From positions 1 through 22,239 of the IMG/VR virus record IMGVR_UViG_3300022752_000431: DNA of 22,239 bases. One strand, 5' to 3'. Each line of letters opens with the position of its first letter. Positions within the stretch are counted from its first letter, which is position 1. The notes beneath the pieces were generated by a model that saw nothing but the letters and a program-made list of their open reading frames with translations, did no database searches and had not been told where the DNA came from. Shown piece by piece: positions 610 through 22,239 of this stretch. Origin of the DNA: a virus. The position numbers were made by a program, and so were the translations under genes.

Positions 610-618
610 ATTTATCTC

Positions 619-1842
619 CTATCCTACATATATTTTTAACGGAACTTTTGCTAATATCTCATTCATTTGTGTTGCTTCGGCATTTTGACGGGTTAACATT
701 TGTTCTTTAGTTAATTTATCTAAGAACTCTCGCAACTGCGTAATCAATGCTTCTTTTTCAGATTGACCTTGTGAAACTAAATCTGAACCATTGAGTGTTA
801 CTTCGCCATTTGGAATAGGAACGGAACTATACTTATTACGTACATACCCTAACATTTCTTTTACTAGAGCCGATCCGTATCTATATATCCACGCACGCCC
901 CATATCATTAATACTGCCGTATTTTTGATAAGTATATGGTATATTTGATGCGTCTGTTACAACATTGTTTAAAAGTGCTGTATTACCGAATAAAAGTGCA
1001 TCGTTTGCTTTGTCTTGTTCAAAAATGAATTCAAACCATACTTTATCAAAATACGGAGATGCTAATGTACCTTTTGTAGTTGGCACTGGATAAAATTTAA
1101 TATCGTCTCCATGTATTTCAAAAGAAAAATGTGATTTTCTAATTTGATCATTAAATTCTATTTGTTGTATACGAAACAAATCTGCATGTATAGGCATCAT
1201 CATAAAATTCACCGATGGTGAAAATCCTCCGAAATCAAATGCATCTAACAATTGTTGCGAACCTAATCCTGTTCCAACAAATGGGTCAAAATATCTAACA
1301 ATTGCTGGTGGTGTATTATGCATTACTCGTTTTATTTCAATAGAACTAGAATTACTTAATACTATGCCTAATGATGCTGAGATAGCATCTCGTATGCTAT
1401 ACGTTTGCTGTCCGGGGATGACATCTACCGATGCAGTATACCAACGTACGTTACCTCCGGAATCTGCTTCAGTGCCATATGCTTTTGAAAGTTTAGTTAT
1501 GTAATTAAATGAATTTCCTACTAAAGCTCCGGTAAATCCTTGTGATGTTAAAAAATTAGATGCAGTATTAATTCCTAATGTATTCATCAAATTGTTAACA
1601 ATGTTAACTTGATTGATTTGATTTGAATATTCTATTACTGATGCTTCAAATGCCGTATAAAAGTTTATATCAATTAATTCTACATCCATTATTGGATATC
1701 CTACCGAATTTGCAGCAAATTTAGCAAAACTATCTGCTTCGGATTGAAACATGGGATCAGTATCAAAAAATCCAAATGGTGTAGAACCTGTAGTAAATGA
1801 AGAACTACCTGGCCATATGGGCTTATTTTCGCTATAATCCAT
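619..1842 (-). CDS. Probable neck protein, gp13-like
   Basis: A 407-residue soluble protein with no signal peptide or membrane segment. The N-terminus (WPGSSSFTTGSTPFGFFDTD, residues 9-28) and the following helical stretch (GYPIMDVELIDINFYTAFEA, about residues 48-67) match a type of structural protein I recall from T4-like marine phages, usually annotated as neck or virion protein. The DINFYTAFE..VIEY helices also resemble head-tail adaptor proteins. It is longer than T4 gp13 (309 residues). It lies directly upstream of the gp14-like gene and opens a unit preceded by an ATATTTATAT motif 16 bases from the ATG. AAAAGGA provides a moderate ribosome binding site. Virion-structural is fairly safe; the exact T4 counterpart is not. 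Confidence 0.55.
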   Translation of the reverse strand: MDYSENKPIWPGSSSFTTGSTPFGFFDTDPMFQSEADSFAKFAANSVGYPIMDVELIDINFYTAFEASVIEYSNQINQVNIVNNLMNTLGINTASNFLTSQGFTGALVGNSFNYITKLSKAYGTEADSGGNVRWYTASVDVIPGQQTYSIRDAISASLGIVLSNSSSIEIKRVMHNTPPAIVRYFDPFVGTGLGSQQLLDAFDFGGFSPSVNFMMMPIHADLFRIQQIEFNDQIRKSHFSFEIHGDDIKFYPVPTTKGTLASPYFDKVWFEFIFEQDKANDALLFGNTALLNNVVTDASNIPYTYQKYGSINDMGRAWIYRYGSALVKEMLGYVRNKYSSVPIPNGEVTLNGSDLVSQGQSEKEALITQLREFLDKLTKEQMLTRQNAEATQMNEILAKVPLKIYVG

Positions 1843-1858
1843 GATAATGTCCTTTTAA

Positions 1859-2913: not shown

Positions 2914-4590
2914 TTAAAGAACATTTAATCCATGTACATATACTTTACCGTAGAACTCTGGACGAACCACTTTCTTCGCGTAACGTGTCATGACACCTTT
3001 ACGTGGAGTGAAGTTAACTGGATCATATACTAATGGAGTCATGATAAGTGGAACGTATGGGCTAAATACTGCACCTGTTTCAAGGAATTGACTTCCTCTG
3101 AATCCCATAAGGATTACGTTTTCTTTCATGTATGGGTTTTTGTATACTGTGTATCTGTTATTGATTGCACCAATTTTTTGTACACCGGCAGCAAATTCCA
3201 TTTTGTTACCATCTGTATCAGCTGCAAATCCTGGGATTGACTCAAGGACAGTTGCAACTGCAGGAGAAGTTACAAGGAAGTTAGCACCACCACGTAATGT
3301 TTTTTGGTGAATTTTATTTGATACTTTTTGAAGTTTAGTACCTAAAGTTTGGAACCATCCACCTTGAGTGTTGTAGAATCCATCACCAGCAGATGTTGCT
3401 GCGCCGGCTGCAGATTGTGTAAATCCTGTGCCATTCCAAAAATTATTATTTAATGCTGACCAATACTCAGTTGTTGGAGCTGATGCAATCAACATATCTA
3501 AGATCTCTAAATCAATTTCCATTGATACATACTCAGACAACATTGAAGTCAATTCAGCTTCAGCATCAATTGAATGGTAAGCGTTAAGGTCTTGAGCAAA
3601 TTCAGGTGTCCAAACTGCTTTCAACTTACGTGTTTTAGCAACGATTGGCTCTGATTGAAGCTCTAAGTTAACTTCCGGGATATCAATATCAGTACCTTGA
3701 TTGATTCCTGATGTTCCTGATCCTTTGAATGGATTAGTATCTTCAAAATCACCTCTGGTAATATCTGTTGGTTGTTTGCTATAATTTACATACAATGCAG
3801 ATGCCGCTTTTGCAGCTTGAATTTTAGTAGCGTCAGCTGTTGATACAATAAATGATCCTGTTAAATTAGCATCAACTTTAGTAAATGCTTGTACTGGAAC
3901 AATTTCAGTAGATCCTGATAAGAATGTAAACGATCTAACTGCTAATTTATCTGCATCTGTTGGTAATGCAATTGTTACTTTTTTATAGCTTGATAAAGAT
4001 GCTGAATAATCAGAATCAAAATTTACATCTGATGCATCAGTTATCGTACCTGCACCTGAACCTGTAGATGCTACTGCAGATAAATTTGCTGATGTTATAT
4101 TATTAATTGAATATCCAAATCGACCTGCTCCATAAAGACCACCTGTTGGATCACTTGATGTAGTAGTAACACCAAATAATGAATCGTCAGCATTTGGAGA
4201 ACTAAATGGATCACCTGTTCTGTTCAAGTTATCAGAATCAAATCCTGGTTGAGCTGTACCGTATTTGAAATCTAAATAAAATATAAGTCCTGATGGCAAG
4301 TTCATTGGTTGAACTGAAACGAATTCTTTAGCTGCAAATTCAGCAAAGATTCTTCTTACCAATGGAAGTGCTACACCTGCCCATTCTTCAGATCCTGCTG
4401 CCGTACCTGTAGCTGATGATTCTTTTACCAATTGACGTGCTTGGTTTTCAAGCAATTGAGCCATTCCGGCTTTTTCTGTCTCATTTCTAAGACCTTCTAA
4501 TAGTCCCGTTCTTTCCCATTTATTAACCAAACCTTTAGCGGCTGATCTTTGAGATGCATCTGGACTTTGTAATAATGAATTTAAACTCAT
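2914..4590 (-). CDS. 23: Major capsid protein, gp23-like
   Basis: This 558-residue protein forms the hexamers of the head shell (HK97 fold, T4 gp23 family; T4 protein 521 residues). The family core is clear: VQPMNLPSG at residues 93-101, and a conserved block at 319-362 containing KTRKLKAVWTPEFAQDLNAY and IDAEAELTSML. Between them, residues about 115-300 are rich in Ser, Thr, Gly and Asp and probably include a variable surface insertion. The first 57 or so residues look like the segment removed by the prohead protease; LVKE|SSATG (E57) lies where T4 gp23 is cut, and LLE|G (E32) is an alternative. The ribosome binding site is very strong (AAAGGAGAT), preceded by a run of 11 A. The gene follows the scaffold gene and ends at a terminator. 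Confidence 0.96.
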   Translation of the reverse strand: MSLNSLLQSPDASQRSAAKGLVNKWERTGLLEGLRNETEKAGMAQLLENQARQLVKESSATGTAAGSEEWAGVALPLVRRIFAEFAAKEFVSVQPMNLPSGLIFYLDFKYGTAQPGFDSDNLNRTGDPFSSPNADDSLFGVTTTSSDPTGGLYGAGRFGYSINNITSANLSAVASTGSGAGTITDASDVNFDSDYSASLSSYKKVTIALPTDADKLAVRSFTFLSGSTEIVPVQAFTKVDANLTGSFIVSTADATKIQAAKAASALYVNYSKQPTDITRGDFEDTNPFKGSGTSGINQGTDIDIPEVNLELQSEPIVAKTRKLKAVWTPEFAQDLNAYHSIDAEAELTSMLSEYVSMEIDLEILDMLIASAPTTEYWSALNNNFWNGTGFTQSAAGAATSAGDGFYNTQGGWFQTLGTKLQKVSNKIHQKTLRGGANFLVTSPAVATVLESIPGFAADTDGNKMEFAAGVQKIGAINNRYTVYKNPYMKENVILMGFRGSQFLETGAVFSPYVPLIMTPLVYDPVNFTPRKGVMTRYAKKVVRPEFYGKVYVHGLNVL

Positions 4591-4626
4591 CGTTTTATCT
4601 CCTTTGTTTTTTTTTTTGTTTTAAAA

Positions 4627-5613
4627 TTAAATTAATCCTGCCAATTTTTTCCAACGGTTTGCATATTCAAAACCTTCGTTAAGAATTTGCGTTTTTGGCG
4701 CCGTTGATGCAACTGGTCTTGAAGCATAAGATTTAGATTCTTTAACTACTTTTCTAGTTTTTGTTGGCTTATTAAAGCTTTCTGCTAAAGTAGTAAATAC
4801 TAATTTTGCTTCTCGAGTTGTTGCTGCTCTATCAAAGTTTTCAATAACTTTCATTTTTTGTGCTTCGTTAAGCTCAAAGTTACGGAACAATTTGTTAGTG
4901 TATAACAATTTAGCGTTAAGTAGATTAACTTCGTTGATCACTGATTGAAGTTGTTTTACGGTGCGATATGCTTCTTGAAGATCTTTTTCCATTTTTTTGT
5001 ATTTACCTTCTTCAACTGACGTTTCATCTTCTTCTTCTGGCATTTCTTCTTCTTCTGCAAGAATAGCTTCAATTAATGCATCGATTGATTCATTTGCCAT
5101 TTTATCTTCTTCTTCGTAAGAATCTTCTTCGTACATTCCTTCTTCTACTGCATCGACAGGTGGCACTTCAGTTAATGGCTCATCCATCCCTGCTTCTAAT
5201 TCAGCAATAATTGATTCTAAATTTAAATCTTCTTCTTCAGCTGCATACTCATCTTCTGCTGGCATTTCTTCTTCTGGCATTTCTTCTTCTTCAGCACCAC
5301 CTAAATTCAAATCACCTTCGTAATCATATGAACCATCATTGTCATAATCAACTCCGATTCCTAATGAATCAGGCATATCCATTCCCATTTCGTCAGCGCC
5401 AGCTTCCATTTCGTCAGCACCCATTGCTACATCTTCAGCACCTGCTTCTAATTCTTCTTCGCCTTCTAATTCGCTCATCAATTGAGTTTCTAGCATGCTT
5501 TTCATTTGAGGCATAAATGCTTCTTGTAACGCTAATTTTGCATTTGCTAGTGCAGTTTCTTTAACAGCTTTAGCATCTGCGATTGCTTGTTTTAGCAAAT
5601 CTGATTTTGCCAT
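4627..5613 (-). CDS. 22: Prohead scaffold (core) protein, gp22-like
   Basis: A 328-residue protein that probably forms the internal core around which capsid subunits assemble, before being degraded by the prohead protease. Evidence is position directly upstream of gp23 and composition: a helical Ala/Lys-rich N-terminus (1-45), a long Glu/Met/Asp-rich acidic middle (about 50-205), and a helical C-terminal third with a coiled-coil-like stretch (about 205-285). T4 gp22 is 269 residues, so the acidic region is extended. A predicted protease site, ILNE|G, lies 15 residues from the C-terminus. A strong SD (AAGGAG) lies six bases before the ATG. The gene opens the scaffold-capsid unit and has the longest leader in the window. 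Sequence identity to T4 gp22 is not visible by eye. Confidence 0.82.
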   Translation of the reverse strand: MAKSDLLKQAIADAKAVKETALANAKLALQEAFMPQMKSMLETQLMSELEGEEELEAGAEDVAMGADEMEAGADEMGMDMPDSLGIGVDYDNDGSYDYEGDLNLGGAEEEEMPEEEMPAEDEYAAEEEDLNLESIIAELEAGMDEPLTEVPPVDAVEEGMYEEDSYEEEDKMANESIDALIEAILAEEEEMPEEEDETSVEEGKYKKMEKDLQEAYRTVKQLQSVINEVNLLNAKLLYTNKLFRNFELNEAQKMKVIENFDRAATTREAKLVFTTLAESFNKPTKTRKVVKESKSYASRPVASTAPKTQILNEGFEYANRWKKLAGLI

Positions 5614-5741
5614 TGTTTTCTCCTTAAATTTGTTTTTGGAAATAAGATTATTCTAAATCTTAATAGAAATTATTTATTTGTCGACACTATATAGAAAATA
5701 GCGTATTCTTTAATATATATGAACATGTTTGAAAAAACAGT
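5614..5741 (-). promoter_or_regulatory. Leader and probable promoter region of gp22-gp23
   Basis: This non-coding stretch lies between the terminator after bS21 and the scaffold gene. Near its upstream end the coding strand carries CATATATATTAAAG (about 5710-5721), a variant of the ATATTTATAT-AAA motif lacking the central TT. Closer to the gene a 7-bp hairpin (TAAGATT, loop TAGAAT, AATCTTA; 5643-5662) lies about 20 bases before the SD. A start near the variant motif would give a leader of roughly 90 bases, far longer than for other units here. The promoter is inferred. Confidence 0.4.
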
Positions 5742-5773
5742 AAAAAAGTCCTAACTTTTTTGTTAGGACCTTT
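5742..5773 (-). terminator. Rho-independent terminator after bS21
   Basis: The coding strand has a perfect 8-bp stem, GTCCTAAC and GTTAGGAC, around an AAAAAA loop, flanked by AAA and a six-T run. It lies 14 bases after the bS21 stop. The 14 bases TTTTTTACTGTTTT after the stem are identical to those at the terminator after gp23. Confidence 0.88.
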
Positions 5774-5787
5774 AAAATAATTTAATC

Positions 5788-6039
5788 TTAGCTATTTTTT
5801 TGATGAAAATCTTTAATTTGTTGCAAATACTTAGCTGAATTAAGTTGTTCTCTACGTTTAACACTAGGTTTTGTAAATGTTTTATTGTCTTTAAGTTTTT
5901 CTAATGCACCTGATGATTTAACTTTTCTTTTAAATGTTTTTAATGCATACGCTAAATCTTCTCTGTTAGTTCCTAAAACATTAACGCCTGTTGCGTGTCC
6001 TGGAATAATCGTTTTGTGATGTTTTTGTTTTTTATTCAT
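5788..6039 (-). CDS. rpsU: Ribosomal protein bS21, phage-encoded
   Basis: This 83-residue basic protein matches small-subunit protein bS21. Residues 26-73 follow the family pattern: NREDLAYALKTFKRKVKSSG, then FTKPSVKRREQ and SAKYLQQ. A 24-residue N-terminal extension makes it longer than bacterial bS21 (about 65-71). The KPSV...A-Y-Q end resembles Bacteroidetes bS21 more than E. coli bS21 (KPT...). Y71 aligns without gaps with the tyrosine (Y54, from memory) of the Flavobacterium protein reported to help hide the anti-SD of 16S rRNA. Phage-encoded bS21 is known from other marine phages, where it is thought to replace or supplement the host protein on the 30S subunit. The gene lies last in the protease unit, just before a terminator. 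Its 10-base leader has no SD. Identification is strong; the effect on translation is inferred. Confidence 0.9.
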   Translation of the reverse strand: MNKKQKHHKTIIPGHATGVNVLGTNREDLAYALKTFKRKVKSSGALEKLKDNKTFTKPSVKRREQLNSAKYLQQIKDFHQKNS

Positions 6040-6049
6040 ATATATTAAA

Positions 6050-6526
6050 TTAAATTTTTCCTTGTGGTCTTCTTGTAGGTTGTGGCGGTTGTTGATTAAC
6101 TACATTAAATCTAAAATGTTTAAGTTCTGGTAATTGTGAAAAATATCCTTGAATCTTTTGAGCTTCAGTTCCTGGATCTTGTCCTAAACGAAAATAAAAA
6201 TATCCTAATTTACCTGTTTTTGATTTTGAATGTTTAACTATAGTAAAACCTTTTTTAGTAGTCCATTGCTTGATAGTCTCTGCTACTTGCTCAGCTTGTG
6301 CCGGATCGCGAAGAATATACTGTACGCCTCCTTGATAGTCAGTAATATTATTTACAAGTTGAGCTTCTTGTAATTCTTCTTCCATTGTTAATGCAGATTT
6401 TAAACGTTCGGCTTGATCTGCCATTTGACTCATACGATCAACATCGTCATCTGACAGCTTCGGAATTGAAGCTTGTTCCTTTAGACCGAACCACTCTTTA
6501 TACATTTTTTTAAACTTGCTCATCAT
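6050..6526 (-). CDS. Hypothetical protein in the head module, 158 aa
   Basis: I do not recognise this protein. The N-terminal 60 residues are helical and charged; residues about 65-150 look like a compact alpha/beta domain (GGVQYILRDP, then GFTIVKHSKS and LGYFYFRLGQ) followed by a Pro/Gln/Arg-rich tail. A sequence LKE at residues 15-17 could be a protease site, but the next residue is Gln. Two ATG codons are adjacent (6526 and 6523). AAAGG lies three bases before the first and six before the second, so the second may be the real start, giving 157 residues. It sits between the 137-residue gene and bS21, within the head-core and protease unit, so a virion-internal or assembly role is plausible. 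Confidence 0.72.
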   Translation of the reverse strand: MMSKFKKMYKEWFGLKEQASIPKLSDDDVDRMSQMADQAERLKSALTMEEELQEAQLVNNITDYQGGVQYILRDPAQAEQVAETIKQWTTKKGFTIVKHSKSKTGKLGYFYFRLGQDPGTEAQKIQGYFSQLPELKHFRFNVVNQQPPQPTRRPQGKI

Positions 6527-6972: not shown

Positions 6973-7602
6973 TTATATCCTACATTTACCATCTTCGCAT
7001 AAAATCGAAGTAATGATTTCGTTTACTTTTCCGTATTTATTTATTTGTTTATTTTTATTTACTGATTCATTCATTTGCGTAGGACGCATAAAAGCCCCAT
7101 GTGTTGAAGGATTTGATACAAAGTCCCAACAAATTAATTCAAAATCTTCTTGAACTTCAACTACACCTTCATTACGTAATTCTTTAACTGAGCCTAATCC
7201 TCGGCTAGAAATTCCTAATGTTATGCCAGCTTTGAAAAGTGACTTTAAAATATTGCCTGAGGGTGTATCTAATATTTGTACTGCTCCGCATAAATCATCA
7301 CCTTTCCACCATATTTTTAAAACATTGTGTGATACGTTGTTTAAATTTACTACCGATGACTCTGGATGATCCAATTCTCCTAATGCTCGATGTTGATCAA
7401 TATATTCTTGTTGGTATCGGCGACATTCTCTTTCTAAGATTTGTTTTGGATACACGCGACCGTTTTGATTTTTTGCGCCTGCTCTTTGTAAAACTCCTTG
7501 TACAACAAAACCACCAGGTATTCCATATGCAGCACCATTAGATTCATTTAACGAACCTACGGGGTTAAATGGCATATATTCTACTATTAGTTGTTTTGAC
7601 AT
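6973..7602 (-). CDS. 21: Prohead core protease, gp21-like
   Basis: A 209-residue serine protease, nearly the length of T4 gp21 (212). In T4 this enzyme sits in the prohead core, degrades scaffold and trims the capsid protein before packaging. Visible catalytic candidates are H79 (GELDHPES), S132/S133 (GISSRG) and D160 (CWDFVSNPS), in the His-Ser-Asp order of herpesvirus/T4-type proteases. Its own N-terminus has SLNE|S (E20) and its C-terminus QMNE|S, plausible self-processing sites. The ribosome binding site is strong (AGGAGA, five or six bases before ATG). It is placed after two putative core proteins, as in the T4 order 20-67-68-21. Confidence 0.95.
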   Translation of the reverse strand: MSKQLIVEYMPFNPVGSLNESNGAAYGIPGGFVVQGVLQRAGAKNQNGRVYPKQILERECRRYQQEYIDQHRALGELDHPESSVVNLNNVSHNVLKIWWKGDDLCGAVQILDTPSGNILKSLFKAGITLGISSRGLGSVKELRNEGVVEVQEDFELICWDFVSNPSTHGAFMRPTQMNESVNKNKQINKYGKVNEIITSILCEDGKCRI

Positions 7603-7603
7603 A

Positions 7604-8395
7604 TTATTCTCCTAATGATCTAATTCGTTCTGATATTTTTATTAATCGTTCTGATATTTTATTCAATGCTTTTTTAGATGATTCTTTTAATCCTCCATGA
7701 GCAATACCGGATTCCGTTTTTAATCTGCTTGTATATCTAATTGTTTCTTCAATTTCTTTTAGTTTTTGTGCAACTTGTTTTATTGAATCATTTACACGTT
7801 GCTCCGGAGTTTGTTTTGCATTGCCAAATGCAAATGAACGATAACCTTCAATAAGTTGTTCATATCTTCGATCCATTGCTTCTGTTAGTTTTGGCGTTTG
7901 GCTAGGTGTATCTGTTAATGGTATAGAAGGATATTTTGTTACTTTTTTACCTTGCCAATCTACTTCATTTTCAGCAAATGCAAATTTATCCATCCATTCT
8001 TCTTCCTGTGATTCCGGTCTTTGGTATTCTCCGGGCTTATATGTTGGAGGAGTATTAATACCTTCTTTAACTCGTTTATATCCTAACGTTTCTACGGTAT
8101 CGTCATCAGCATTACCAAATGCTTTTGGCGTCATGTATGATCCAGCTCCTGCAGATGTAGATATTTCCTCTAAATCTTCATGATAGCCTTTATAATCACA
8201 ATGCAAACATCCTTCGCCTTCACACTTTACACATTGTTCTTTATTTTGATGGTGTGATCTAGTTGCCTGTTTAATAGCTTTATCTTTAACTCCTAAATAT
8301 TCTTGGCTCGGCGTTTCTTGTTTACCGTCGCCGTCCCAATCTTTTTCATTTAGAGTTTCAAAGCTTTCTTCTATTTGTCGAAGGAATGATTTCAT
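7604..8395 (-). CDS. Putative prohead core protein with Cys cluster and DxDxDG loop
   Basis: A 263-residue protein in the place occupied by T4 core genes 67/68, between portal and protease. I do not recognise a named family. Two features stand out: D19-W-D-G-D-G24 (KDWDGDGKQE), like the first half of a calcium-binding EF-hand or dockerin loop, and a zinc-ribbon-like C55-x2-C58-x4-C63-x2-C66 (CVKCEGEGCLHC) similar to one DnaJ-type CxxCxGxG repeat. The C-terminal 90 residues are helical and charged. TLNE (E17) may be a prohead protease site. Its ATG overlaps the stop of the 283-residue gene (ATGA), so translation is coupled; GAGG lies seven bases upstream. The core role is inferred from position. 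Confidence 0.72.
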   Translation of the reverse strand: MKSFLRQIEESFETLNEKDWDGDGKQETPSQEYLGVKDKAIKQATRSHHQNKEQCVKCEGEGCLHCDYKGYHEDLEEISTSAGAGSYMTPKAFGNADDDTVETLGYKRVKEGINTPPTYKPGEYQRPESQEEEWMDKFAFAENEVDWQGKKVTKYPSIPLTDTPSQTPKLTEAMDRRYEQLIEGYRSFAFGNAKQTPEQRVNDSIKQVAQKLKEIEETIRYTSRLKTESGIAHGGLKESSKKALNKISERLIKISERIRSLGE

Positions 8396-9284: not shown

Positions 9285-11114
9285 TTATAAAATGTTGTTT
9301 TCATCTAACATTGTACCTGAATCTAAATCTTGTTCTGATGATTTAAGTGATTCTGTTATAATTTTAGACGTATTTGATTTATTTTTCAAGTATCTTAAAA
9401 TGTTTTTACCTTCTGCTGTAAATGGTTTTCGTTCCTTAGGTAATGGTTGAAATGCAGTCTTTTGATTTTGCACATCAAATGCTTGATCTAATTCTTTTTT
9501 ACCGGTAGGATCCCAACCGAATGCATTTTTATGTTGTCCAAATTTAATTCCTTCTTTTGGACGTCCACCCGGATCTTTTTCTTCTACATCATCGGAACTC
9601 ATATGCATTGAAGCTAAGTCGTGCGGTGTACCATATGACACTCCTGTTACTGTTGGATCATTGCCTTCTTGTTCAATTTGGTTTTGACGGAAACGAAGTT
9701 TAAGATCTTCAATAACATTGGTTCTTTCTTGAAGCCACTGATCTTCCGACATATTGAATATGAATTCATAAATGTACTTATCTGAAACTAATTTAGAATC
9801 TTTCATTGCATTAGCTAATGTCATTTTTTCAGTCATTAATGCAACTTTTTGCTGATCGTAAATGATTGAAGGAGCTGTTAATTCTAATTCAAATCCAACT
9901 AAATCTTCACCTTCGTATCCCTGAGCATATAAATGTACAATTGCAATTTTATAAAGTTCTGATACTACAATTTTTTGAATACGTTCTATAGTTCTAGCAA
10001 AACGAATATCCATAGATGCTAATGTAGTTTTACCTTCAACTGCTTCTGCATATCCTAAAAATGGTTTAGGAATTTTTAATGCAGCCATCATTTTATCTTT
10101 GATATATTCTAAGTCTTCCGTACCTGTCCAAGTCATTCCTGGCAATGTATCAATAGTTGTTGAAGATTGTCCACCGCGTACTGGTAAATAATAATCTTCT
10201 AACATATTGTTAAGATTGAAACGTAAATTGTAATTTCCTGTTTGTTGATCAATATGTGGAATCTTTTTCATTTTATTGATAATTTGTTCCATAAATGTAT
10301 CAACTTCATTTGGCGGAATATTACCAATATCAATTTTAAAAATACGTTTTTCTGGTGCTCGCATTATTCTGTGAATAAGCATTGCATCTTCCATCATCAT
10401 TAATTTTTGGAACTCTTTACGTGCACCTTCTAACATTGATCTACCATATGGTAAAAAATTTGTATCAGATAACATGCGGAAATGTGCAATTTCAAAAACA
10501 TCATATGCTTCTTTAGCATCAGCCATATGTCTAAATTTAATTACATATTCTCCGGTTTTTTCATCAAATTCTTCATATCGTTCAATTTCATAACTAGAAA
10601 AAGGACGAGCATTTATAATTCCTAATTCATCGACAATATCAATTTTTAAAAAGAAATCGCCATACTTAGTTAAATTGCGTATCCATGTCCACAAATTAAA
10701 TTCAACATTTAATACATCATAAAATAAATTATAAAGTATTTTTTGTATGTTTGTTTTATTTGTTTTGATTGTTAAAATATCACCAAATTGATCTGCTAGA
10801 GTTGATTCATCTGAATATATATCAAGAGCTGCTGATATGATTGGATCTTTATCCATCATTTCGTAATCCGTATATAACTGCATACGATTCTGTTGCATAT
10901 AGTAATTAGAATCATATCCACCGTTCGAATTTGCTCCGGCTTTGTGACGAGATCCATGAAGTCTAGTATATCTGTCCGCAACTTTGCTTTGAGTTAAATT
11001 ACCTGCTCCTTGCAAACGATTGGTGTCGACAACACGAATTTTGTCTTTACCATACATTCTAACAACTACATTTGTATTGAATAGATTCTGTAAACGTTTT
11101 CTTAACGATGCCAT
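9285..11114 (-). CDS. 20: Portal protein, gp20-like
   Basis: A 609-residue portal subunit; in T4 twelve copies form the DNA channel at the head vertex, start head assembly and dock the terminase. The family signature is clear at residues 223-268: YGRSMLEGARKEFQKLMMME, then IHRIMRAPEKRIFKIDIGNI. The upstream block DKDPIISAALDIYSDEST (about 89-105) is also typical. T4 gp20 is 524 residues, so this one has an extra C-terminal tail of about 90 residues, hydrophilic and rich in Lys, Gly and Ser, with IITE|S near the end as a possible protease site. It has its own ATATTTATAT motif 12 bases upstream and no clear SD. It directly follows terminase, without the sheath and tube genes found there in T4. 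Confidence 0.95.
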   Translation of the reverse strand: MASLRKRLQNLFNTNVVVRMYGKDKIRVVDTNRLQGAGNLTQSKVADRYTRLHGSRHKAGANSNGGYDSNYYMQQNRMQLYTDYEMMDKDPIISAALDIYSDESTLADQFGDILTIKTNKTNIQKILYNLFYDVLNVEFNLWTWIRNLTKYGDFFLKIDIVDELGIINARPFSSYEIERYEEFDEKTGEYVIKFRHMADAKEAYDVFEIAHFRMLSDTNFLPYGRSMLEGARKEFQKLMMMEDAMLIHRIMRAPEKRIFKIDIGNIPPNEVDTFMEQIINKMKKIPHIDQQTGNYNLRFNLNNMLEDYYLPVRGGQSSTTIDTLPGMTWTGTEDLEYIKDKMMAALKIPKPFLGYAEAVEGKTTLASMDIRFARTIERIQKIVVSELYKIAIVHLYAQGYEGEDLVGFELELTAPSIIYDQQKVALMTEKMTLANAMKDSKLVSDKYIYEFIFNMSEDQWLQERTNVIEDLKLRFRQNQIEQEGNDPTVTGVSYGTPHDLASMHMSSDDVEEKDPGGRPKEGIKFGQHKNAFGWDPTGKKELDQAFDVQNQKTAFQPLPKERKPFTAEGKNILRYLKNKSNTSKIITESLKSSEQDLDSGTMLDENNIL

Positions 11115-11160: not shown

Positions 11161-12738
11161 TTAAAGTAACCAAGTTAAATTTTCATCATTTGCACCATTA
11201 TTCCATTTCCATGAATCATTTCCTTGGTTTGGTTTGCCGGTGTAAATAACTGGATCTGTTTTTTGAAATTGGGATAATGCACGTTTGCTAAGATCGATTC
11301 CGTGCTGTCGTAGTTTTAAGGATGTATCTCGCAACCATAGTGCAATACAAAACGACATTACTAAATCATCATTATAACCGTTTTGTGCTTGAGCTTTACC
11401 ATTTAACCAAACAAATACAAATAATTCTTGAATAAGACGTTTTGATCTAATTACTGGTGTTCGTTCGCGCATATACATTTCTAATGCAGATATCATTAAT
11501 GGACGTGTACGTGATGTTGTTGATACACCAGGAACCATTTGGGTTTTATCTTTCATATCATAACCTTTTTTAAGTTGTACGTCAACATCAACATATCCGT
11601 CATCTTTATATGTATAAAATAATTTTTCGTAATTTCTATCTAATGCAGGTTGAATTGCCGCCCAACCAATATTAGCATTTTCTATTGCTAATAATGCATT
11701 ATTCCATTCTGTTGCAACCGAAACAAGCATATTACCGAAATCTTTAGGTGGAAGTTTTCCTTTATATTCTGCAACTTGTCGTACGTCTTGTACATCCAAT
11801 ACATGAAATGTTGACCAGTCACCGCCATCGCCTCGAGCAACGTCTGCCACTACTACATAATCTTTTGCATAGTCCGGATATTCCCAAATCCAATATGCAT
11901 TATCATATCCACGACGTTCGATAGGCTCTATGCACTTATTTTCATATTCCATTAATATAGCACCATCTACTACAGTATGTCCGGATGAAATAAAGTCACA
12001 ATCACATTCTTGTGCTGCACCACGTTCACCTAAAAGTTGAGTTTGTTCATCGCGCCATGTTTGATCACGTTCTGGATGTACTGTCCAATGCAGTTTAATT
12101 GTGTGAAATCCGTTGATTTCTTGTTCAGCTTCTGACCATACTGAGTGAAACCAATTTCCTACACCGTTAGGTGTTGATAATACAATAGCACCACCACCTG
12201 TTGATAATGTTGCCTGAGATGCTATCCAAATTTCTTCAATATTACGAATAAATGCTGCCTCATCTATAATAAGCAACGATAATGCTTCTGAACGTGCACC
12301 AGTTGTTGCCGATGATACTGCTTTGATTTGTGAACCATTTTTAAATTTCAAAGAAAGTTTATTGTCGGCTTCAACATTTCCTTTCAACCAACTTGGTAAA
12401 TTTTCGTGCATCACTCGTACTTTTGTTACTAGATTTTTTGCAACTTCTTGTGTTGTTGCAATAACAAGTACGTTAAAATCTTCTTTGAACAACATGCTCC
12501 ATAAAGCAAATCCTGCAGAAAGAGTTGATATTCCTAACTGTCGTGATTTTAATATTACACTGTAACGATTATCACGTAATTCAGTTAATGATGATTCCTG
12601 AAACGGAAATAAATTAAATTTGATCTTGCCTCGTTTAGGATGTTGAATGTAACAATATTGCTTCATGAAAAAAACAGGATCTTTAGCACACATTGCGTAC
12701 TGCTGTTGAATGATCTGTTTTATATTGGGTTGACTCAT
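11161..12738 (-). CDS. 17: Terminase large subunit, gp17-like
   Basis: A 525-residue packaging motor with an N-terminal ATPase and a C-terminal nuclease that cuts concatemeric DNA. The ATPase shows Walker A SRQLGIST (65-72), Walker B LLIIDEAAF (155-163) and the coupling motif LSTPNG (187-192). The nuclease shows D299 (VVVADVARGD), E352 (AIENAN) and D457/D458 (NGYNDDLV), matching the D-E-D acidic set of T4 gp17. T4 gp17 is 610 residues; the shortfall is mainly at the N-terminus. The ATG overlaps the region of the preceding gene's stop by one base of spacing, and no SD is visible, so translational coupling is likely. No small terminase subunit (gp16) gene was recognised next to it; the 214-residue protein is too dissimilar to call. 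Confidence 0.96.
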   Translation of the reverse strand: MSQPNIKQIIQQQYAMCAKDPVFFMKQYCYIQHPKRGKIKFNLFPFQESSLTELRDNRYSVILKSRQLGISTLSAGFALWSMLFKEDFNVLVIATTQEVAKNLVTKVRVMHENLPSWLKGNVEADNKLSLKFKNGSQIKAVSSATTGARSEALSLLIIDEAAFIRNIEEIWIASQATLSTGGGAIVLSTPNGVGNWFHSVWSEAEQEINGFHTIKLHWTVHPERDQTWRDEQTQLLGERGAAQECDCDFISSGHTVVDGAILMEYENKCIEPIERRGYDNAYWIWEYPDYAKDYVVVADVARGDGGDWSTFHVLDVQDVRQVAEYKGKLPPKDFGNMLVSVATEWNNALLAIENANIGWAAIQPALDRNYEKLFYTYKDDGYVDVDVQLKKGYDMKDKTQMVPGVSTTSRTRPLMISALEMYMRERTPVIRSKRLIQELFVFVWLNGKAQAQNGYNDDLVMSFCIALWLRDTSLKLRQHGIDLSKRALSQFQKTDPVIYTGKPNQGNDSWKWNNGANDENLTWLL

Positions 12739-12739
12739 A

Positions 12740-13120
12740 TCAATTTACTAGTTGTGATATAGAAAATGCTGTTAGTATTGCCGTAACGAGTCCGCTTCCG
12801 AACCAAATTCCTTTTGCATCCCACCATTTAGGTTGAAGTTGACGCTGACGTTTAATATATAGATCTATGTTATCATTTAACAATTCTATTTGCTGTTTTT
12901 GATAATCAATTTGCATTGAATCTAATGCTAATAATTTTCTACATGTTTTAATTGCATCTTCTTGTTGTGTTATGATTACATTATTTATACTGTCTGCTTC
13001 CCAAAGTGAATCTAAGGTTTTAGATATTTGTATAATTTCTTGTTCTGTAAAACATGTATCGGGAATATTTTGTGCAAAACTAAATACCGGAAATGATAAT
13101 ATGATTAATAACTTTTTCAT
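12740..13120 (-). CDS. Small secreted, membrane-anchored protein (lysis candidate)
   Basis: A 126-residue protein with an N-terminal signal peptide (MKKLLIILSFPVFSFA|Q, predicted cut after A16), a helical coiled-coil-like middle (about 25-95) with C23 and C60, and a C-terminal membrane segment (about 105-123). The FSFAQ cleavage region is typical of Flavobacteriia and is a main host clue. It would therefore be exported and held in the inner membrane by its C-terminus. The ATG overlaps the stop of the 114-residue gene (ATGA). Two overlapping small membrane proteins with coiled coils just before terminase suggest a spanin- or holin-like pair, but there is no lipobox and no homology I can name, so function is open. 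Confidence 0.75.
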   Translation of the reverse strand: MKKLLIILSFPVFSFAQNIPDTCFTEQEIIQISKTLDSLWEADSINNVIITQQEDAIKTCRKLLALDSMQIDYQKQQIELLNDNIDLYIKRQRQLQPKWWDAKGIWFGSGLVTAILTAFSISQLVN

Positions 13121-15117: not shown

Positions 15118-17184
15118 TCATCGAGCGTATTTCAATACTCCTAGTATCTGATTAACTGGTGCAAAGGCTCCAGTTAATTTATACGTATTACCTTTATAAA
15201 CAAATACTACGCCTTCAGATGGAACTATAGCATCAAAGCCTCCTAAACGTTCTATGCGTCGTAATTCGTGTTCTAATTTTTTAATAGAGTCTATATTATT
15301 TGATGTTTGTAATTCTTTGATCAATTGAGCAATTTCTTGTTTTATTTCTTGAACTGCTTTGCTAGGATTTGCTGCTAGAAAATTTTCTGCATTACGTAAT
15401 ACTACTGCACCTAACCGTAGAAATATGCTTTCAAATGGCTCCATGTTTTGTTTGTAGTATTGTTTGAATTCTTTTTTATCAAATTCAGTCATCCATGCTA
15501 CGAATTCTGGATTTGTAATTTGTTTTTTAAGATTGGAGATATTTGCAGATTTATCAAAAAAGCCCCAACGATAAATAAGTGCAGATAAAATATCATCTGG
15601 AATATCATATCCTAACTGTTGAGCTTTACTTCTAATTACATCTGCCCACCATGCTCTATGATATTCAGTTACTTGATCCGTGTCTTTTAAGTTGTAACGT
15701 GTTCGTAATTGATCTATTTCATTGAAGAATGCAGCTTGTTGATCTTCAAAATCAGCTACTCTACCAATGCGTACTTGTTGTGGAGGAATAAATGAGAATG
15801 TTTTTTGCATATCTGCATTAGCATCTCGAATTACTCCTTGTAACATTTTACCTCCGGTAAAATCTGTTTGAATCACATTGCCGGCTTCATCATATTCAAC
15901 GAGATTATGAAATTGAAGATGTGCTTTATCATATGATATTACATTTTTAGTTGCAGGAAATATTATTTCCATGTTTGCAAACACTCGACCATTTTTAAAT
16001 ATTTGTTGAAGTTGTTGTGGGTTTAATTTATTAAGTGCACTAGTTAAATCTTCTGCACATGCTCTATATGCTTCTACTACTCGTTTATAACCTTCTGCCG
16101 CTTCAGCTCCATTTTTTTGTATGCTTTCTTGATATTTTCTTTCAAAGTCTGCAACAATTTGTTCTGGCGTCATTGGATTGATAACTGTACCTTTATTACG
16201 AGCAAATCCAGGTTGTCCATTTTTCCATGTAACTTGAATATTTTGACCATCAGTTTTTTCAGTAACAGCTTCTTCAATATCTAAACGGCCTTCTAATGCT
16301 CGAGCAACAATTTCTTTCATATCGCCAAATGTTAATCCATGATCATCATATGGATGTGCCATATGCCCTGCTGCGCCGCCTTCTGTTAATATTCGTTCAT
16401 GTAATGGAACGCCAAATGTTGTTTTTTCGAATCGATCAAAATCATATACAAATTCTTTTCCAGGATTTTTATGTAAGAATTTTTTAAGTTTTGATATTTT
16501 TGCATCATGGCGTTTTTGTTGAGCTACAGTCGGATATCCTTCAATTACTGCATTTACGTCTTCTTGCAGTTGTGAAATCCACCATGCTTTTGAAAATAAT
16601 GCTTCTTGTAGACCGGTTAATATTTGCCATGCATTTTTAACTAATGCTTCTTTATATTGCGGATATGATGCTGCAAATGTTGCATAATCATTGTTTTGTA
16701 ATGCTGTTCTAACTGTAGTTGCAGAAACTGGCGTACCATCTGCATACGTTATAGGATCAACATCAACATTTAATTCCGTTGCATCAATACCACTAGGCAT
16801 CGTACGACCTTTTTTATCTCCAATTGTAATATATTTGTCTACATTTGGAACAAATTCTTTAGCACGAACATAATCATCTCCTTTTGTTGATGCTGCCATG
16901 GCATAATTACCTGTAGCATCTTGCGGTAATGCAAATAGATATTCATATGCTGCTACAATCGGAGAATTATGTTCAGTCGGTTGCATTTCAATTTTAGGAG
17001 AAGTATTTAGTAATTCAAATATTTCCATGGTTTTTTCGCGTGTTATACCATCTCGTTCTTTTGGCCCGATAAGCATAATTACGCGTTCTACATTTGGAGA
17101 TTTTACATAACGTTGAGCTAATGCTAAATGAGCTCCCGTTAATGGTTTAAATCCTCCTGGAAAAAGTACTGTTATTTTATTCAT
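15118..17184 (-). CDS. Nucleotidyltransferase fused to a KxDG ligase-like domain
   Basis: This 688-residue protein carries two enzyme domains. Residues 1-180 are a cytidylyltransferase/NMN-adenylyltransferase-type domain: FPGGFKPLTGAH (8-19) stands for the GxFxPxTxGH nucleotide loop and VSATTVR (153-159) for the ISxTxxR motif. From about 300 it has covalent nucleotidyltransferase (RNA/DNA ligase-type) motifs: K310-T-D-G313 (motif I, the lysine that would take AMP), RNKG (329-332, like Ia), E406 (III), EGVV (657-660, IV) and K669 (V). About 250 residues separate motifs III and IV, much more than in T4 RNA ligases, so an inserted domain is likely. The two halves could link NAD-type metabolism to nucleic-acid repair; substrates are unknown. 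A possible protease site, LTE|G, lies at E268 in the linker. It has its own upstream motif. Confidence 0.82.
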   Translation of the reverse strand: MNKITVLFPGGFKPLTGAHLALAQRYVKSPNVERVIMLIGPKERDGITREKTMEIFELLNTSPKIEMQPTEHNSPIVAAYEYLFALPQDATGNYAMAASTKGDDYVRAKEFVPNVDKYITIGDKKGRTMPSGIDATELNVDVDPITYADGTPVSATTVRTALQNNDYATFAASYPQYKEALVKNAWQILTGLQEALFSKAWWISQLQEDVNAVIEGYPTVAQQKRHDAKISKLKKFLHKNPGKEFVYDFDRFEKTTFGVPLHERILTEGGAAGHMAHPYDDHGLTFGDMKEIVARALEGRLDIEEAVTEKTDGQNIQVTWKNGQPGFARNKGTVINPMTPEQIVADFERKYQESIQKNGAEAAEGYKRVVEAYRACAEDLTSALNKLNPQQLQQIFKNGRVFANMEIIFPATKNVISYDKAHLQFHNLVEYDEAGNVIQTDFTGGKMLQGVIRDANADMQKTFSFIPPQQVRIGRVADFEDQQAAFFNEIDQLRTRYNLKDTDQVTEYHRAWWADVIRSKAQQLGYDIPDDILSALIYRWGFFDKSANISNLKKQITNPEFVAWMTEFDKKEFKQYYKQNMEPFESIFLRLGAVVLRNAENFLAANPSKAVQEIKQEIAQLIKELQTSNNIDSIKKLEHELRRIERLGGFDAIVPSEGVVFVYKGNTYKLTGAFAPVNQILGVLKYAR

Positions 17185-20502: not shown

Positions 20503-20512
20503 ATATAAATAT
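20503..20512 (-). promoter_or_regulatory. ATATTTATAT motif upstream of the fibre gene
   Basis: The coding strand reads ATATTTATATGAAAG, 17 bases before the ATG at 20485. Its first base overlaps the TGA stop of gp46. It is one of seven copies, and the only one with a G after the 10-mer. Confidence 0.55.
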
Positions 20513-22239
20513 CAGGAATGATTAATCTTACTAAATCCTGAGGTTTTATTTACTTCAATTAAATTGTCTACCATATCGCGCATTGAGTCTACGTGTGATA
20601 TAATAATTGAAAAATCAAACTTAGTACGAAAATAATCAAACAAATTAACTACTGAAGAAATGTGTTCTGCATCTAGGCTTCCCCAGCCCTCATCGATTGC
20701 AATAAAATTAGGACGTGGTAATGCTGAAACATTGATAAGTGCTATACGTATTGCTAATGAAGAAATAAATCGTTCCATACCGCTTGTTAATTCTAATGGC
20801 CAAAAATCATCTTCATTGTAAATGATATAGCCATTGATGTTTTTGCCATCCGTACTCAATACCATATTGAAATCTACAATCTGATTAAGCACATTGTTTA
20901 TTTCTGATTCAATCTTAGGAAGAGCTTTTGAAATCAATTCGTATGGAATACCATCACGTTTAACAGATTCTAAATAATATTCATAGGCCTTGTATTCAGT
21001 TTCTAATGCACGATATCGTTCTAGGTTTTGCATAGCCGTAGCTTTTTGTGTTTTTGCTACTTCTATTGCACCATAATTATTTTTAATTTGTCCTTGAATT
21101 ATTTTTATTTCATCGGATAATGCAGTAATTTGTTGTTTGCAAGATTCTATTTGAACATCAATTGCATGATTATGTTTGATTGCAGTTTCATTTTGTCTAA
21201 ATGAATCTTGACGTTCAATTGCAGTTTCTAATTCAGATTCTCGTGTTTGTAAATCACTTTCTAAAATCTGAAGTTGCAATTCATTGCGTTCTAATGTTAT
21301 GCGGTTAGTTGCTAATTTATTACGTAATTGATTGAGTTGTGTTGTTTGTTCAAATACTGGTTGTAACGTTTCAATTTCTTGATTCATTGTTACAATTGAC
21401 TGATTGATTTCATTTAATATGTTTCTATCATGATCAATTGTATTTTGAGCTTCGATTGCGTTTTGTACAAAAACGTTAGATGTACAGTATTTGCATTGCG
21501 GATCATATTCATGGTCGGAAAGATGATCAATTTTTTCTTGTTTTGCATTTACTATTTCCTTTTGTTGACGATATTTTTGTAATAAGATATTAACTGAATA
21601 TGTTTTTGATGCATGCAGTTCTGTTTGTTCTATAATAGAATGCGTGTCAAATGTTTCCAATTGTGTTTCTTGTTGTTCAATTGTTGCATTTAATTCGTCT
21701 AACTCTCGTTCTGCAGTTTCTATTTCAGTTTGAATGTTTTCTATTTGTTTTACAAGTGCAGATTCTTGCCGTTGCAATTCATTGATGTCAGGCCCATTAT
21801 ATGTAGTTGGCATCTTTGTTTCAATAAGCTCAACAATACGTTCTTGCAGAGTATTGCGTTGATCTTGCAAGACATCTTCTTGTTGTTCTAATGCAGTTAT
21901 TGTTTCTTGGTTGTCTGATATAACCGTATCAGCTGTTATGATTAAATCAGCAAAATCTGTTTTTTTATAATCTTTCAAACGACCTGCTGTTTCTTTTATT
22001 TCGTCAGCTGCAAGTTGATATAGTTGTTCAAACACCGTAATGTCTAAAAACTGTGAAAGTAGGTCTTTTCGTTCTTTCTGTGATTTTTCTATAAAATTAT
22101 TGTTATCTGCTTGCAATGAAAATGCCGTTAAAATAAAATCATCATATGTGCCTAAATAACGACGTATGTTTTTATTTGTTTCACTTCGTTCTTCGCCATT
22201 TAAATTTTCTGCATCAGTATAAAAATCAACATCAACTTT
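20512..22239 (-). CDS. 46: Recombination endonuclease subunit gp46 (SbcC/Rad50-like), partial
   Basis: The frame is open to the right edge, so the N-terminus with the Walker A loop lies outside the window; about 575 C-terminal residues are present. An internal ATG at 22116 is not the start: upstream codons continue the family sequence (YLGTYDDFILTAFF). Two long coiled-coil arms surround a zinc hook, CKYC (21484-21495). The C-terminal ATPase part has the signature SGMERFISSLA, Walker B FIAIDEGWGSLD and the switch histidine IISHVD. With gp47 (Mre11-like, not in the window) this protein resects DNA ends for recombination-dependent replication and degrades host DNA in T4. It is the only DNA-metabolism gene of the replication set here, upstream of the fibre gene on the same strand. 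Confidence 0.95.
   Translation of the reverse strand, partial: KVDVDFYTDAENLNGEERSETNKNIRRYLGTYDDFILTAFSLQADNNNFIEKSQKERKDLLSQFLDITVFEQLYQLAADEIKETAGRLKDYKKTDFADLIITADTVISDNQETITALEQQEDVLQDQRNTLQERIVELIETKMPTTYNGPDINELQRQESALVKQIENIQTEIETAERELDELNATIEQQETQLETFDTHSIIEQTELHASKTYSVNILLQKYRQQKEIVNAKQEKIDHLSDHEYDPQCKYCTSNVFVQNAIEAQNTIDHDRNILNEINQSIVTMNQEIETLQPVFEQTTQLNQLRNKLATNRITLERNELQLQILESDLQTRESELETAIERQDSFRQNETAIKHNHAIDVQIESCKQQITALSDEIKIIQGQIKNNYGAIEVAKTQKATAMQNLERYRALETEYKAYEYYLESVKRDGIPYELISKALPKIESEINNVLNQIVDFNMVLSTDGKNINGYIIYNEDDFWPLELTSGMERFISSLAIRIALINVSALPRPNFIAIDEGWGSLDAEHISSVVNLFDYFRTKFDFSIIISHVDSMRDMVDNLIEVNKTSGFSKINHS

What the first reader, a model, noticed from the sequence alone, without database searches (positions are those of the whole stretch)
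5788..6039. Phage-encoded bS21 with a Bacteroidetes-type anti-SD-binding tyrosine
The 83-residue protein is a convincing bS21. Its C-terminal part (FTKPSV, then SAKY71LQQ) aligns without gaps to the Bacteroidetes bS21 sequence I recall, placing Y71 on Y54 of the Flavobacterium protein. In that ribosome bS21 helps sequester the anti-SD of 16S rRNA (recalled from published structural work). A phage copy could replace host bS21 and change which mRNAs start well. The 24-residue N-terminal extension is not part of normal bS21 and may carry a new function.
Basis: partly seen in the sequence, partly recalled or inferred. Interest (0 to 1): 0.85.

Follow-up and report, generated by a model that had tools for sequence, protein, structure and literature searches.

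The report
Phage ribosomal protein S21 with tail
A virus of (very probably) Bacteroidota bacteria carries its own copy of ribosomal protein S21, a kind of gene already known in such viruses; what is new is that this copy belongs to a family with a strictly kept extra tail, and that those viruses mark their coat-protein genes with ribosome-binding signals that Bacteroidia ribosomes are known to ignore.

Summary
The minus-strand ORF 5788-6039 is a true bS21 (Pfam E 2.9e-10, above NCBI's S21p cut-off). Its best solved relatives include F. johnsoniae bS21, aligned without gaps with Y71 on Y54. The extension is about 17 residues, not 24. As stated the finding is already published: Chen 2022 describes Bacteroidetes phages with bS21 beside TerL, portal, protease and MCP and with an aromatic residue at position 54. 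Al-Shayeb 2020 noted N-terminal extensions on phage S21. New here: (1) the protein belongs to one clade (60 distinct sequences) whose tail M[NST]KKQKxHxxI[VI]xG is under stronger purifying selection than the core, and in which all members keep Y/F/H at position 54. (2) Unlike Bacteroidota genomes with aromatic bS21 (52), nine Bacteroidia phage isolates, or phages with untailed aromatic bS21, these phages put Shine-Dalgarno sequences at normal spacing on coat and other abundant-protein genes (46% of genes against 4%, 5% and 0%). (3) The phage bS21 gene itself has none (0 of 47), whereas host rpsU has the very strong SD used for autoregulation. Best reading: a bS21 substitute that retunes late initiation. 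That its tail opens SD use is a testable, unproven hypothesis; an SD-using host is the main rival.

The parts
5788..6039 (-). phage bS21 (rpsU-like) gene, 83 aa
   Evidence: ORF and translation; Pfam PF01165 E 2.9e-10; TIGR00030
5989..6039 (-). codons 1-17: N-terminal tail MNKKQKHHKTIIPGHAT; K6, H8, G14 invariant in 60 distinct relatives, V21 just beyond it
   Evidence: pN/pS 0.23 against 0.38 for the core; predicted disordered
5830..5970 (-). bS21 core domain matched by Pfam (residues 24-70)
5827..5829 (-). codon of Tyr71, aligned with F. johnsoniae bS21 Tyr54 that stacks on A1534 of the 16S 3' tail
   Evidence: ungapped alignment to 7jil; Y/F/H in every tailed relative
5744..5773 (-). terminator-like hairpin just after bS21 (12 pairs, then U-run), separating it from scaffold-MCP
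   Evidence: an equivalent found by a strict scan in 13 of 49 distinct relatives
6050..6526 (-). conserved hypothetical gene directly upstream of bS21, same strand, no SD (1 of 39 relatives)
6973..7602 (-). prohead protease (gp21-like, Peptidase_S77)
7609..7613 (-). AGGAG SD of the protease gene (overlaps the end of the upstream gene)
4627..5613 (-). acidic prohead core/scaffold-like gene (no family hit; inferred from position before MCP)
5620..5625 (-). AAGGAG SD of the scaffold gene
   Evidence: conserved in relatives
2914..4590 (-). major capsid protein gp23
   Evidence: Pfam Gp23 5.5e-76
4599..4604 (-). AAGGAG SD of the MCP gene
616..620 (-). AGGAG SD of the gene at 91-609
   Evidence: mean dG -9.8 in 12 relatives
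1850..1854 (-). AAGGA SD of the head-completion-like gene at 619-1842
9285..11114 (-). portal protein gp20, no SD (0 of 18 relatives)
11161..12738 (-). large terminase gp17, no SD
12740..13120 (-). small exported protein with signal peptide followed by Gln (SFAQ|NIP), fits the Bacteroidetes Q-rule: host clue
   Evidence: PMC5837995

Best explanation
This is a phage-encoded paralogue of Bacteroidia-type bS21 that is made from the head-gene region and takes the place of host bS21 on the 30S platform. Its C-terminal part keeps the contact with the 16S 3' tail (aromatic at position 54). Its gene lacks the SD that controls host rpsU, so it can be made on ordinary bS21-replete ribosomes. Its conserved, basic, probably flexible N-terminal tail lies on the side where mRNA and the SD helix would pass, and tunes initiation in favour of phage late mRNAs, whose coat-protein genes carry SDs. 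Shown: bS21 identity, Y54 equivalence, tail conservation, SD pattern, missing SD on the bS21 gene. Inferred: incorporation into host ribosomes, Bacteroidia host, effect of the tail.
For: Family and structure matches. Tailed clade is one branch (100/100) among aromatic Bacteroidia-type bS21. 60 of 60 distinct tailed proteins have Y, F or H at position 54 (plus L042 read by eye because the script misplaced its motif). Tail pN/pS 0.23, core 0.38. GGAG/AGGA 4-10 nt before ATG in 137 of 298 genes of tailed phages against 0 of 157 in untailed, mostly aromatic-bS21 phages and 18 of 488 in 52 aromatic-bS21 Bacteroidota genomes; 16 of 323 genes in nine Bacteroidia phage isolates. Sharp spacing peak at 5-9 nt. 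The same shows contig by contig: 21-48% in seven long tailed contigs, 1% in immuto, 4% in G110. Host rpsU mean dG -14.6; phage bS21 0 of 47 at or below -6. Host bS21 autoregulation through the strong SD, and Y54A or C-terminal deletion raising SD use: PMC9976891. Phage bS21 entering E. coli ribosomes: PMC6375957. Bacteroidota host clues: nearest isolates include Flavobacterium phage immuto (TerL and MCP about 55%); all 11 signal-peptide proteins of tailed phages show Gln at the expected cleavage site by eye.
Against: No ribosome, infection or expression data. The host is inferred: no CRISPR match was found (best 31-nt match not in an array). The equally close phage Mel-JY01 is recorded from Microcystis, has SDs and a non-aromatic bS21. 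SDs of MCP and scaffold (dG about -6 to -9) are weaker than the < -13 kcal/mol linked to bS21-free ribosomes in F. johnsoniae. Tail plus SD is one evolutionary lineage, so their link could be coincidence. Keeping the aromatic residue should favour ASD sequestration, not SD use.
Confidence: 0.5

Rival explanations
1. The tailed phages infect an SD-using host (another Bacteroidota class such as an Ignavibacteria-like lineage, or even a cyanobacterium). The SDs merely follow the host's habit and the aromatic residue is a relic of where the gene came from.
For: Mel-JY01 (host recorded as Microcystis) is as close as immuto in TerL, uses SDs and has a tailed, non-aromatic bS21. Several Bacteroidota genomes with Arg at position 54 use SDs. 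High Q-values are also reported for Ignavibacterium album, and Gln after the signal peptide was also seen in 2 of 5 SP-like proteins of Arg-type genomes by eye.
Against: All 60 tailed bS21 keep Y/F/H at position 54 over deep divergence, expected only if it still acts in a Bacteroidia-like ribosome. The bS21 gene nests in Bacteroidia-type sequences. The phages are low in GC (0.31-0.34), while the SD-using Arg-type genomes sampled were 0.45-0.67. Their signal peptides follow the Q-rule.
Confidence: 0.35
2. An ordinary spare bS21: it only keeps ribosomes complete late in infection, without changing mRNA choice; the tail is an anchor that helps it outcompete host bS21.
For: Core and Y54 match the host protein. 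The phage gene has no SD, so it would escape host autoregulation. Competitive binding by basic tails was suggested by Al-Shayeb 2020.
Against: Does not explain why only tailed phages carry SDs on coat genes while other Bacteroidia phages, with or without bS21, do not.
Confidence: 0.3
3. SD use in infected cells comes from another phage product (for example one that removes host bS21 or alters bS6/bS18), with bS21 only a passenger.
For: bS21-free Bacteroidia ribosomes gain SD use, and a phage protease against host bS21 was proposed in PMC9976891.
Against: No candidate was identified here. The SDs of MCP and scaffold are weaker than the strength needed by bS21-free ribosomes.
Confidence: 0.15
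4. Not a functional bS21 (decayed or chance similarity).
For: None found.
Against: Curated cut-offs passed, purifying selection, conservation in more than 80 contigs.
Confidence: 0.01

Closest known systems
bS21 of freshwater Bacteroidetes jumbo phages, clades a-e (Chen et al. 2022, PMC9723584)
   Same: Bacteroidia-type bS21 with aromatic residue at position 54, set between TerL/portal/protease and MCP in myovirus head regions; proposed substitution of host bS21 late in infection
   Different: There bS21 lies on the strand opposite to the head genes; here it is co-directional (67 of 85 tailed loci with both neighbours on the same strand, none with both on the opposite strand). The tail sequence, SD usage and the missing SD on the bS21 gene are not reported in its main text
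Phage S21 with N-terminal extensions (Al-Shayeb et al. 2020, PMC7162821)
   Same: N-terminal extension on phage S21, suggested to aid ribosome binding or preferential initiation
   Different: No clade-specific motif or link of S21 to SD usage was found in the passages read; SD absence was linked there to rpS1, not S21
Flavobacterium johnsoniae bS21 (PDB 7jil; PMC9976891)
   Same: Ungapped core, KPSV motif, Y54
   Different: No 17-residue tail; its gene has an extended SD, the phage gene has none
Pelagiphage HTVC008M bS21 (Mizuno et al. 2019, PMC6375957)
   Same: Phage-borne bS21; that one was shown to enter E. coli ribosomes
   Different: Alphaproteobacterial type; ribosomes carrying it were nearly inactive in E. 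coli translation

Membership tests
bS21 ribosomal protein family | Profile match above curated cut-off | tested here: met
   Pfam 40.1 bits (cut-off 27), TIGR00030 34.2 bits (cut-off 28.95)
bS21 ribosomal protein family | Helical fold with N- and C-terminal helices | tested here: met
   AlphaFold2: helices 26-43, 45-51 and 58-82; mean pLDDT 76, pTM 0.35. Foldseek found no significant PDB match, as may happen for isolated helices
bS21 ribosomal protein family | Bound in the small ribosomal subunit | not testable with these tools
   Needs biochemistry
Bacteroidia-type (ASD-sequestering) bS21 | Aromatic residue aligned with F. johnsoniae Y54 | tested here: met
   Y71, ungapped; Y/F/H in all tailed relatives
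Bacteroidia-type (ASD-sequestering) bS21 | Phylogenetic placement with Bacteroidia sequences | tested here: met
   Tailed clade nested among aromatic sequences (97/92), on a long branch of 1.86 and with only 78 columns
Bacteroidia-type (ASD-sequestering) bS21 | Genome whose genes lack SDs | tested here: not met
   46% of genes near tailed bS21 carry SDs; this concerns how it works, not whether it is a bS21
Chen 2022 bS21 phage clades a-e | bS21 beside TerL, portal, protease and MCP | tested here: met
Chen 2022 bS21 phage clades a-e | bS21 on the strand opposite to head genes | tested here: not met
   Same strand in the window and in relatives
rpsU autoregulated by extended SD | Strong SD before the bS21 gene | tested here: not met
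   0 of 47 phage upstreams at or below -6; host mean -14.6

The most novel reading that the evidence does not exclude
A phage installs a private initiation code. Its tailed bS21 replaces host bS21 and makes the SD-blind Bacteroidia ribosome respond to SDs, which the phage carries on its abundant late proteins and the host lacks on nearly all mRNAs; the bS21 gene itself is SD-less so that it can be made before the switch.
Probability: 0.22. Interest if true: 0.92.

Novelty: new variant of a known kind. Interest (0 to 1): 0.6.

Why it matters
Whether phage bS21 selects phage mRNAs has been an open guess since 2019. This clade gives a concrete and cheap test: its phages carry SDs where their presumed hosts do not, and their bS21 has a conserved tail where untailed relatives, whose phages lack SDs, do not. 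If true, it would be a viral change of ribosome mRNA specificity by swapping one ribosomal protein. If the host turns out to be SD-using, the pattern still gives a host marker.

Tried and rejected
Decayed or chance ORF: rejected. CRISPR link to a Bacteroidia host: 395 genomes searched with 19.9 kb of the window, no array match. The genome-contig scan with the tailed alignment found no bacterial copy of the tailed protein; pattern-limited. Foldseek of the model: nothing significant. NCBIfam scan of exported proteins for Bacteroidota-specific domains: none. The automated Q-rule scripts misjudged some sites; the sequences were judged by eye. Treating Arg at position 54 as a marker of SD use: rejected, since one Arg-type group (MLGVEV) has weak SD use. 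bS21-lacking Bacteroidia genomes as SD-using hosts: too few genes to tell. Capsid tree to order tailed phages, immuto, Mel-JY01 and LR756508: unresolved.

Full report
OBSERVATION. The ORF is at 5788-6039 on the minus strand and encodes 83 aa. It is a bS21: Pfam Ribosomal_S21 E 2.9e-10, 40.1 bits against a cut-off of 27; NCBIfam S21p 34.2 bits against 28.95; PHROG ribosomal protein S21. The best PDB sequences are bS21 9i5v and 7jil (F. johnsoniae). 7jil aligns 26-78 to 9-61 without a gap, which places Y71 on Y54.

SURROUNDINGS. The window is the head region of a T4-like myovirus: TerL, portal, prohead protease, two small genes, bS21, a scaffold-like gene, MCP gp23 and PhoH, all on the minus strand. 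A terminator-like hairpin lies right after bS21 (5744-5773) and another after MCP (2859-2890). The closest isolates are Flavobacterium phage immuto (TerL 54.6%, MCP 55.1%) and Microcystis phage Mel-JY01 (56.4%, 53.7%). Gene order is the same; Mel-JY01 has RpsU in the same place. The immuto stretches read (about 95 of 160 kb, the head region included) hold no bS21.

RELATIVES. Scans of viral contigs gave 28 and then 80 or more relatives (239 confirmed). Sixty distinct proteins share the tail M[NST]KKQKxHxxI[VI]xG...V.V; K6, H8, G14 and V21 never vary. Pairwise pN/pS is 0.23 in the tail and 0.38 in the core. AlphaFold2 leaves residues 1-25 unstructured and predicts helices after that. All tailed proteins have Y, F or H at the Y54 position (one sequence, L042, was mis-parsed by the script and read by eye). 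In a tree the tailed proteins form one branch (100/100) among aromatic Bacteroidia-type bS21 and untailed phage bS21. The tree has only 78 columns and the branch is long, so its exact place is unsure.

SD USAGE. Using one crude gene caller for all groups, GGAG/AGGA lies 4-10 nt before ATG in 137 of 298 distinct genes around tailed bS21 (46%; control window 1.7%). For phages with untailed, mostly aromatic bS21 it is 0 of 157; for 52 Bacteroidota genomes with aromatic bS21, 18 of 488 (3.7%, control 3.5%); for nine isolated phages of Bacteroidia, 16 of 323 (5.0%, control 6.2%). In tailed phages the motif peaks sharply at 5-9 nt from the start codon, as real SDs do; untailed phages have none at 4-9 nt. 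Contig-wide values for seven long tailed contigs are 21-48%, against 1% for immuto and 4% for an untailed bS21 phage. SD-bearing families are MCP, scaffold, protease (overlapping coding sequence), the gene at 91-609, the head-completion gene, and in G104 genes that look like tail sheath and tube by sequence. Portal, PhoH, the gene before bS21 and bS21 itself lack SDs. Many of these genes are homologous, so the very small Fisher values are descriptive only; the tailed clade is one evolutionary event.

AUTOREGULATION. Host rpsU genes show the expected extended SD (mean -14.6 kcal/mol, 29 distinct leaders), the positive control for the method; no phage bS21 leader reaches -6 (0 of 47). In F. johnsoniae that SD lets ribosomes lacking bS21 make bS21 (PMC9976891). 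The phage copy therefore stands outside this control.

HOST. Evidence for Bacteroidota: bS21 type and tree; the immuto relationship; GC 0.31-0.34; and exported proteins with Gln right after the signal peptide (all 11 candidates by eye), as the Bacteroidetes Q-rule predicts (PMC5837995). The Q-rule is not unique to Bacteroidia, and no CRISPR match was found. The host class is therefore probable, not shown.

MECHANISM. Most likely the protein replaces host bS21 on the 30S late in infection, keeps the contact with the 16S 3' tail through Y71 and, by its tail, biases initiation towards phage late mRNAs. The boldest form is that it gives SD response to an SD-blind ribosome. It fits the pattern (SD on abundant late proteins, none on bS21 itself) but conflicts with retention of the sequestering aromatic residue, and rests on the inferred host. 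The main rival is an SD-using host, for which Mel-JY01 (SDs, Arg-type bS21, recorded from Microcystis) is the best argument.

KNOWN WORK. Chen 2022 (PMC9723584) already describes Bacteroidetes phages with bS21 in this neighbourhood, an aromatic residue at Y54 and the replacement idea; there bS21 lies on the opposite strand. Al-Shayeb 2020 (PMC7162821) noted extended phage S21. Mizuno 2019 (PMC6375957) showed a phage bS21 entering E. coli ribosomes. Searches of the held literature found no report of SDs in bS21 phages of Bacteroidota; that library is incomplete. The finding as given is therefore known; the tailed same-strand clade with SD-marked late genes is a new variant.

Noticed in passing
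window 15118-17184 (-): 688-aa protein with a nucleotidyltransferase-like start (FPGGFKPLTGAH) and an EKTDGQN motif in its second half (ligase-like by eye). No confident Pfam or PHROG hit; relatives annotated cytidylyltransferase-like in Mel-JY01; N-terminal half also in Prevotella Lak phages.
   Followed up: partly
L223 / PP395634.1 (Microcystis phage Mel-JY01): Recorded as a Microcystis phage but close to Flavobacterium phage immuto; it has a tailed, non-aromatic bS21, many SDs, and one exported protein with Gln after the signal peptide. Its true host deserves a check.
   Followed up: partly
L023, L025, L027 upstream of bS21: Untailed bS21 phages carry several tRNA genes (Ile, Leu, Arg, Gly) before bS21, and a T-arm-like GGTTCGATCC stretch ends right at the bS21 start.
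   Followed up: no
L371 (LR756508.1) about 34714-34953: A 484-kb uncultured phage with 54.5% identical MCP has an unannotated bS21 just before the scaffold gene, non-aromatic (Met) at position 54, with no SD usage in the region.
   Followed up: partly
L269 8001-8168: bS21 in this 72-kb viral contig nearly equals a bacterial bS21 (L291), so the contig may be prophage or host DNA.
   Followed up: no
bacterial loci L093-L221: The extended SD before rpsU is confirmed in 29 distinct Bacteroidota leaders (mean dG -14.6).
   Followed up: yes
genomes L291-L370: Across Bacteroidota genomes, an aromatic residue at bS21 position 54 goes with no SD usage, while Arg-type genomes vary from weak to clear SD usage.
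   Followed up: partly
window 20512-22116 (-): SbcC-like gene listed with a TTG start near the window end; probably cut off by the end of the contig.
   Followed up: no
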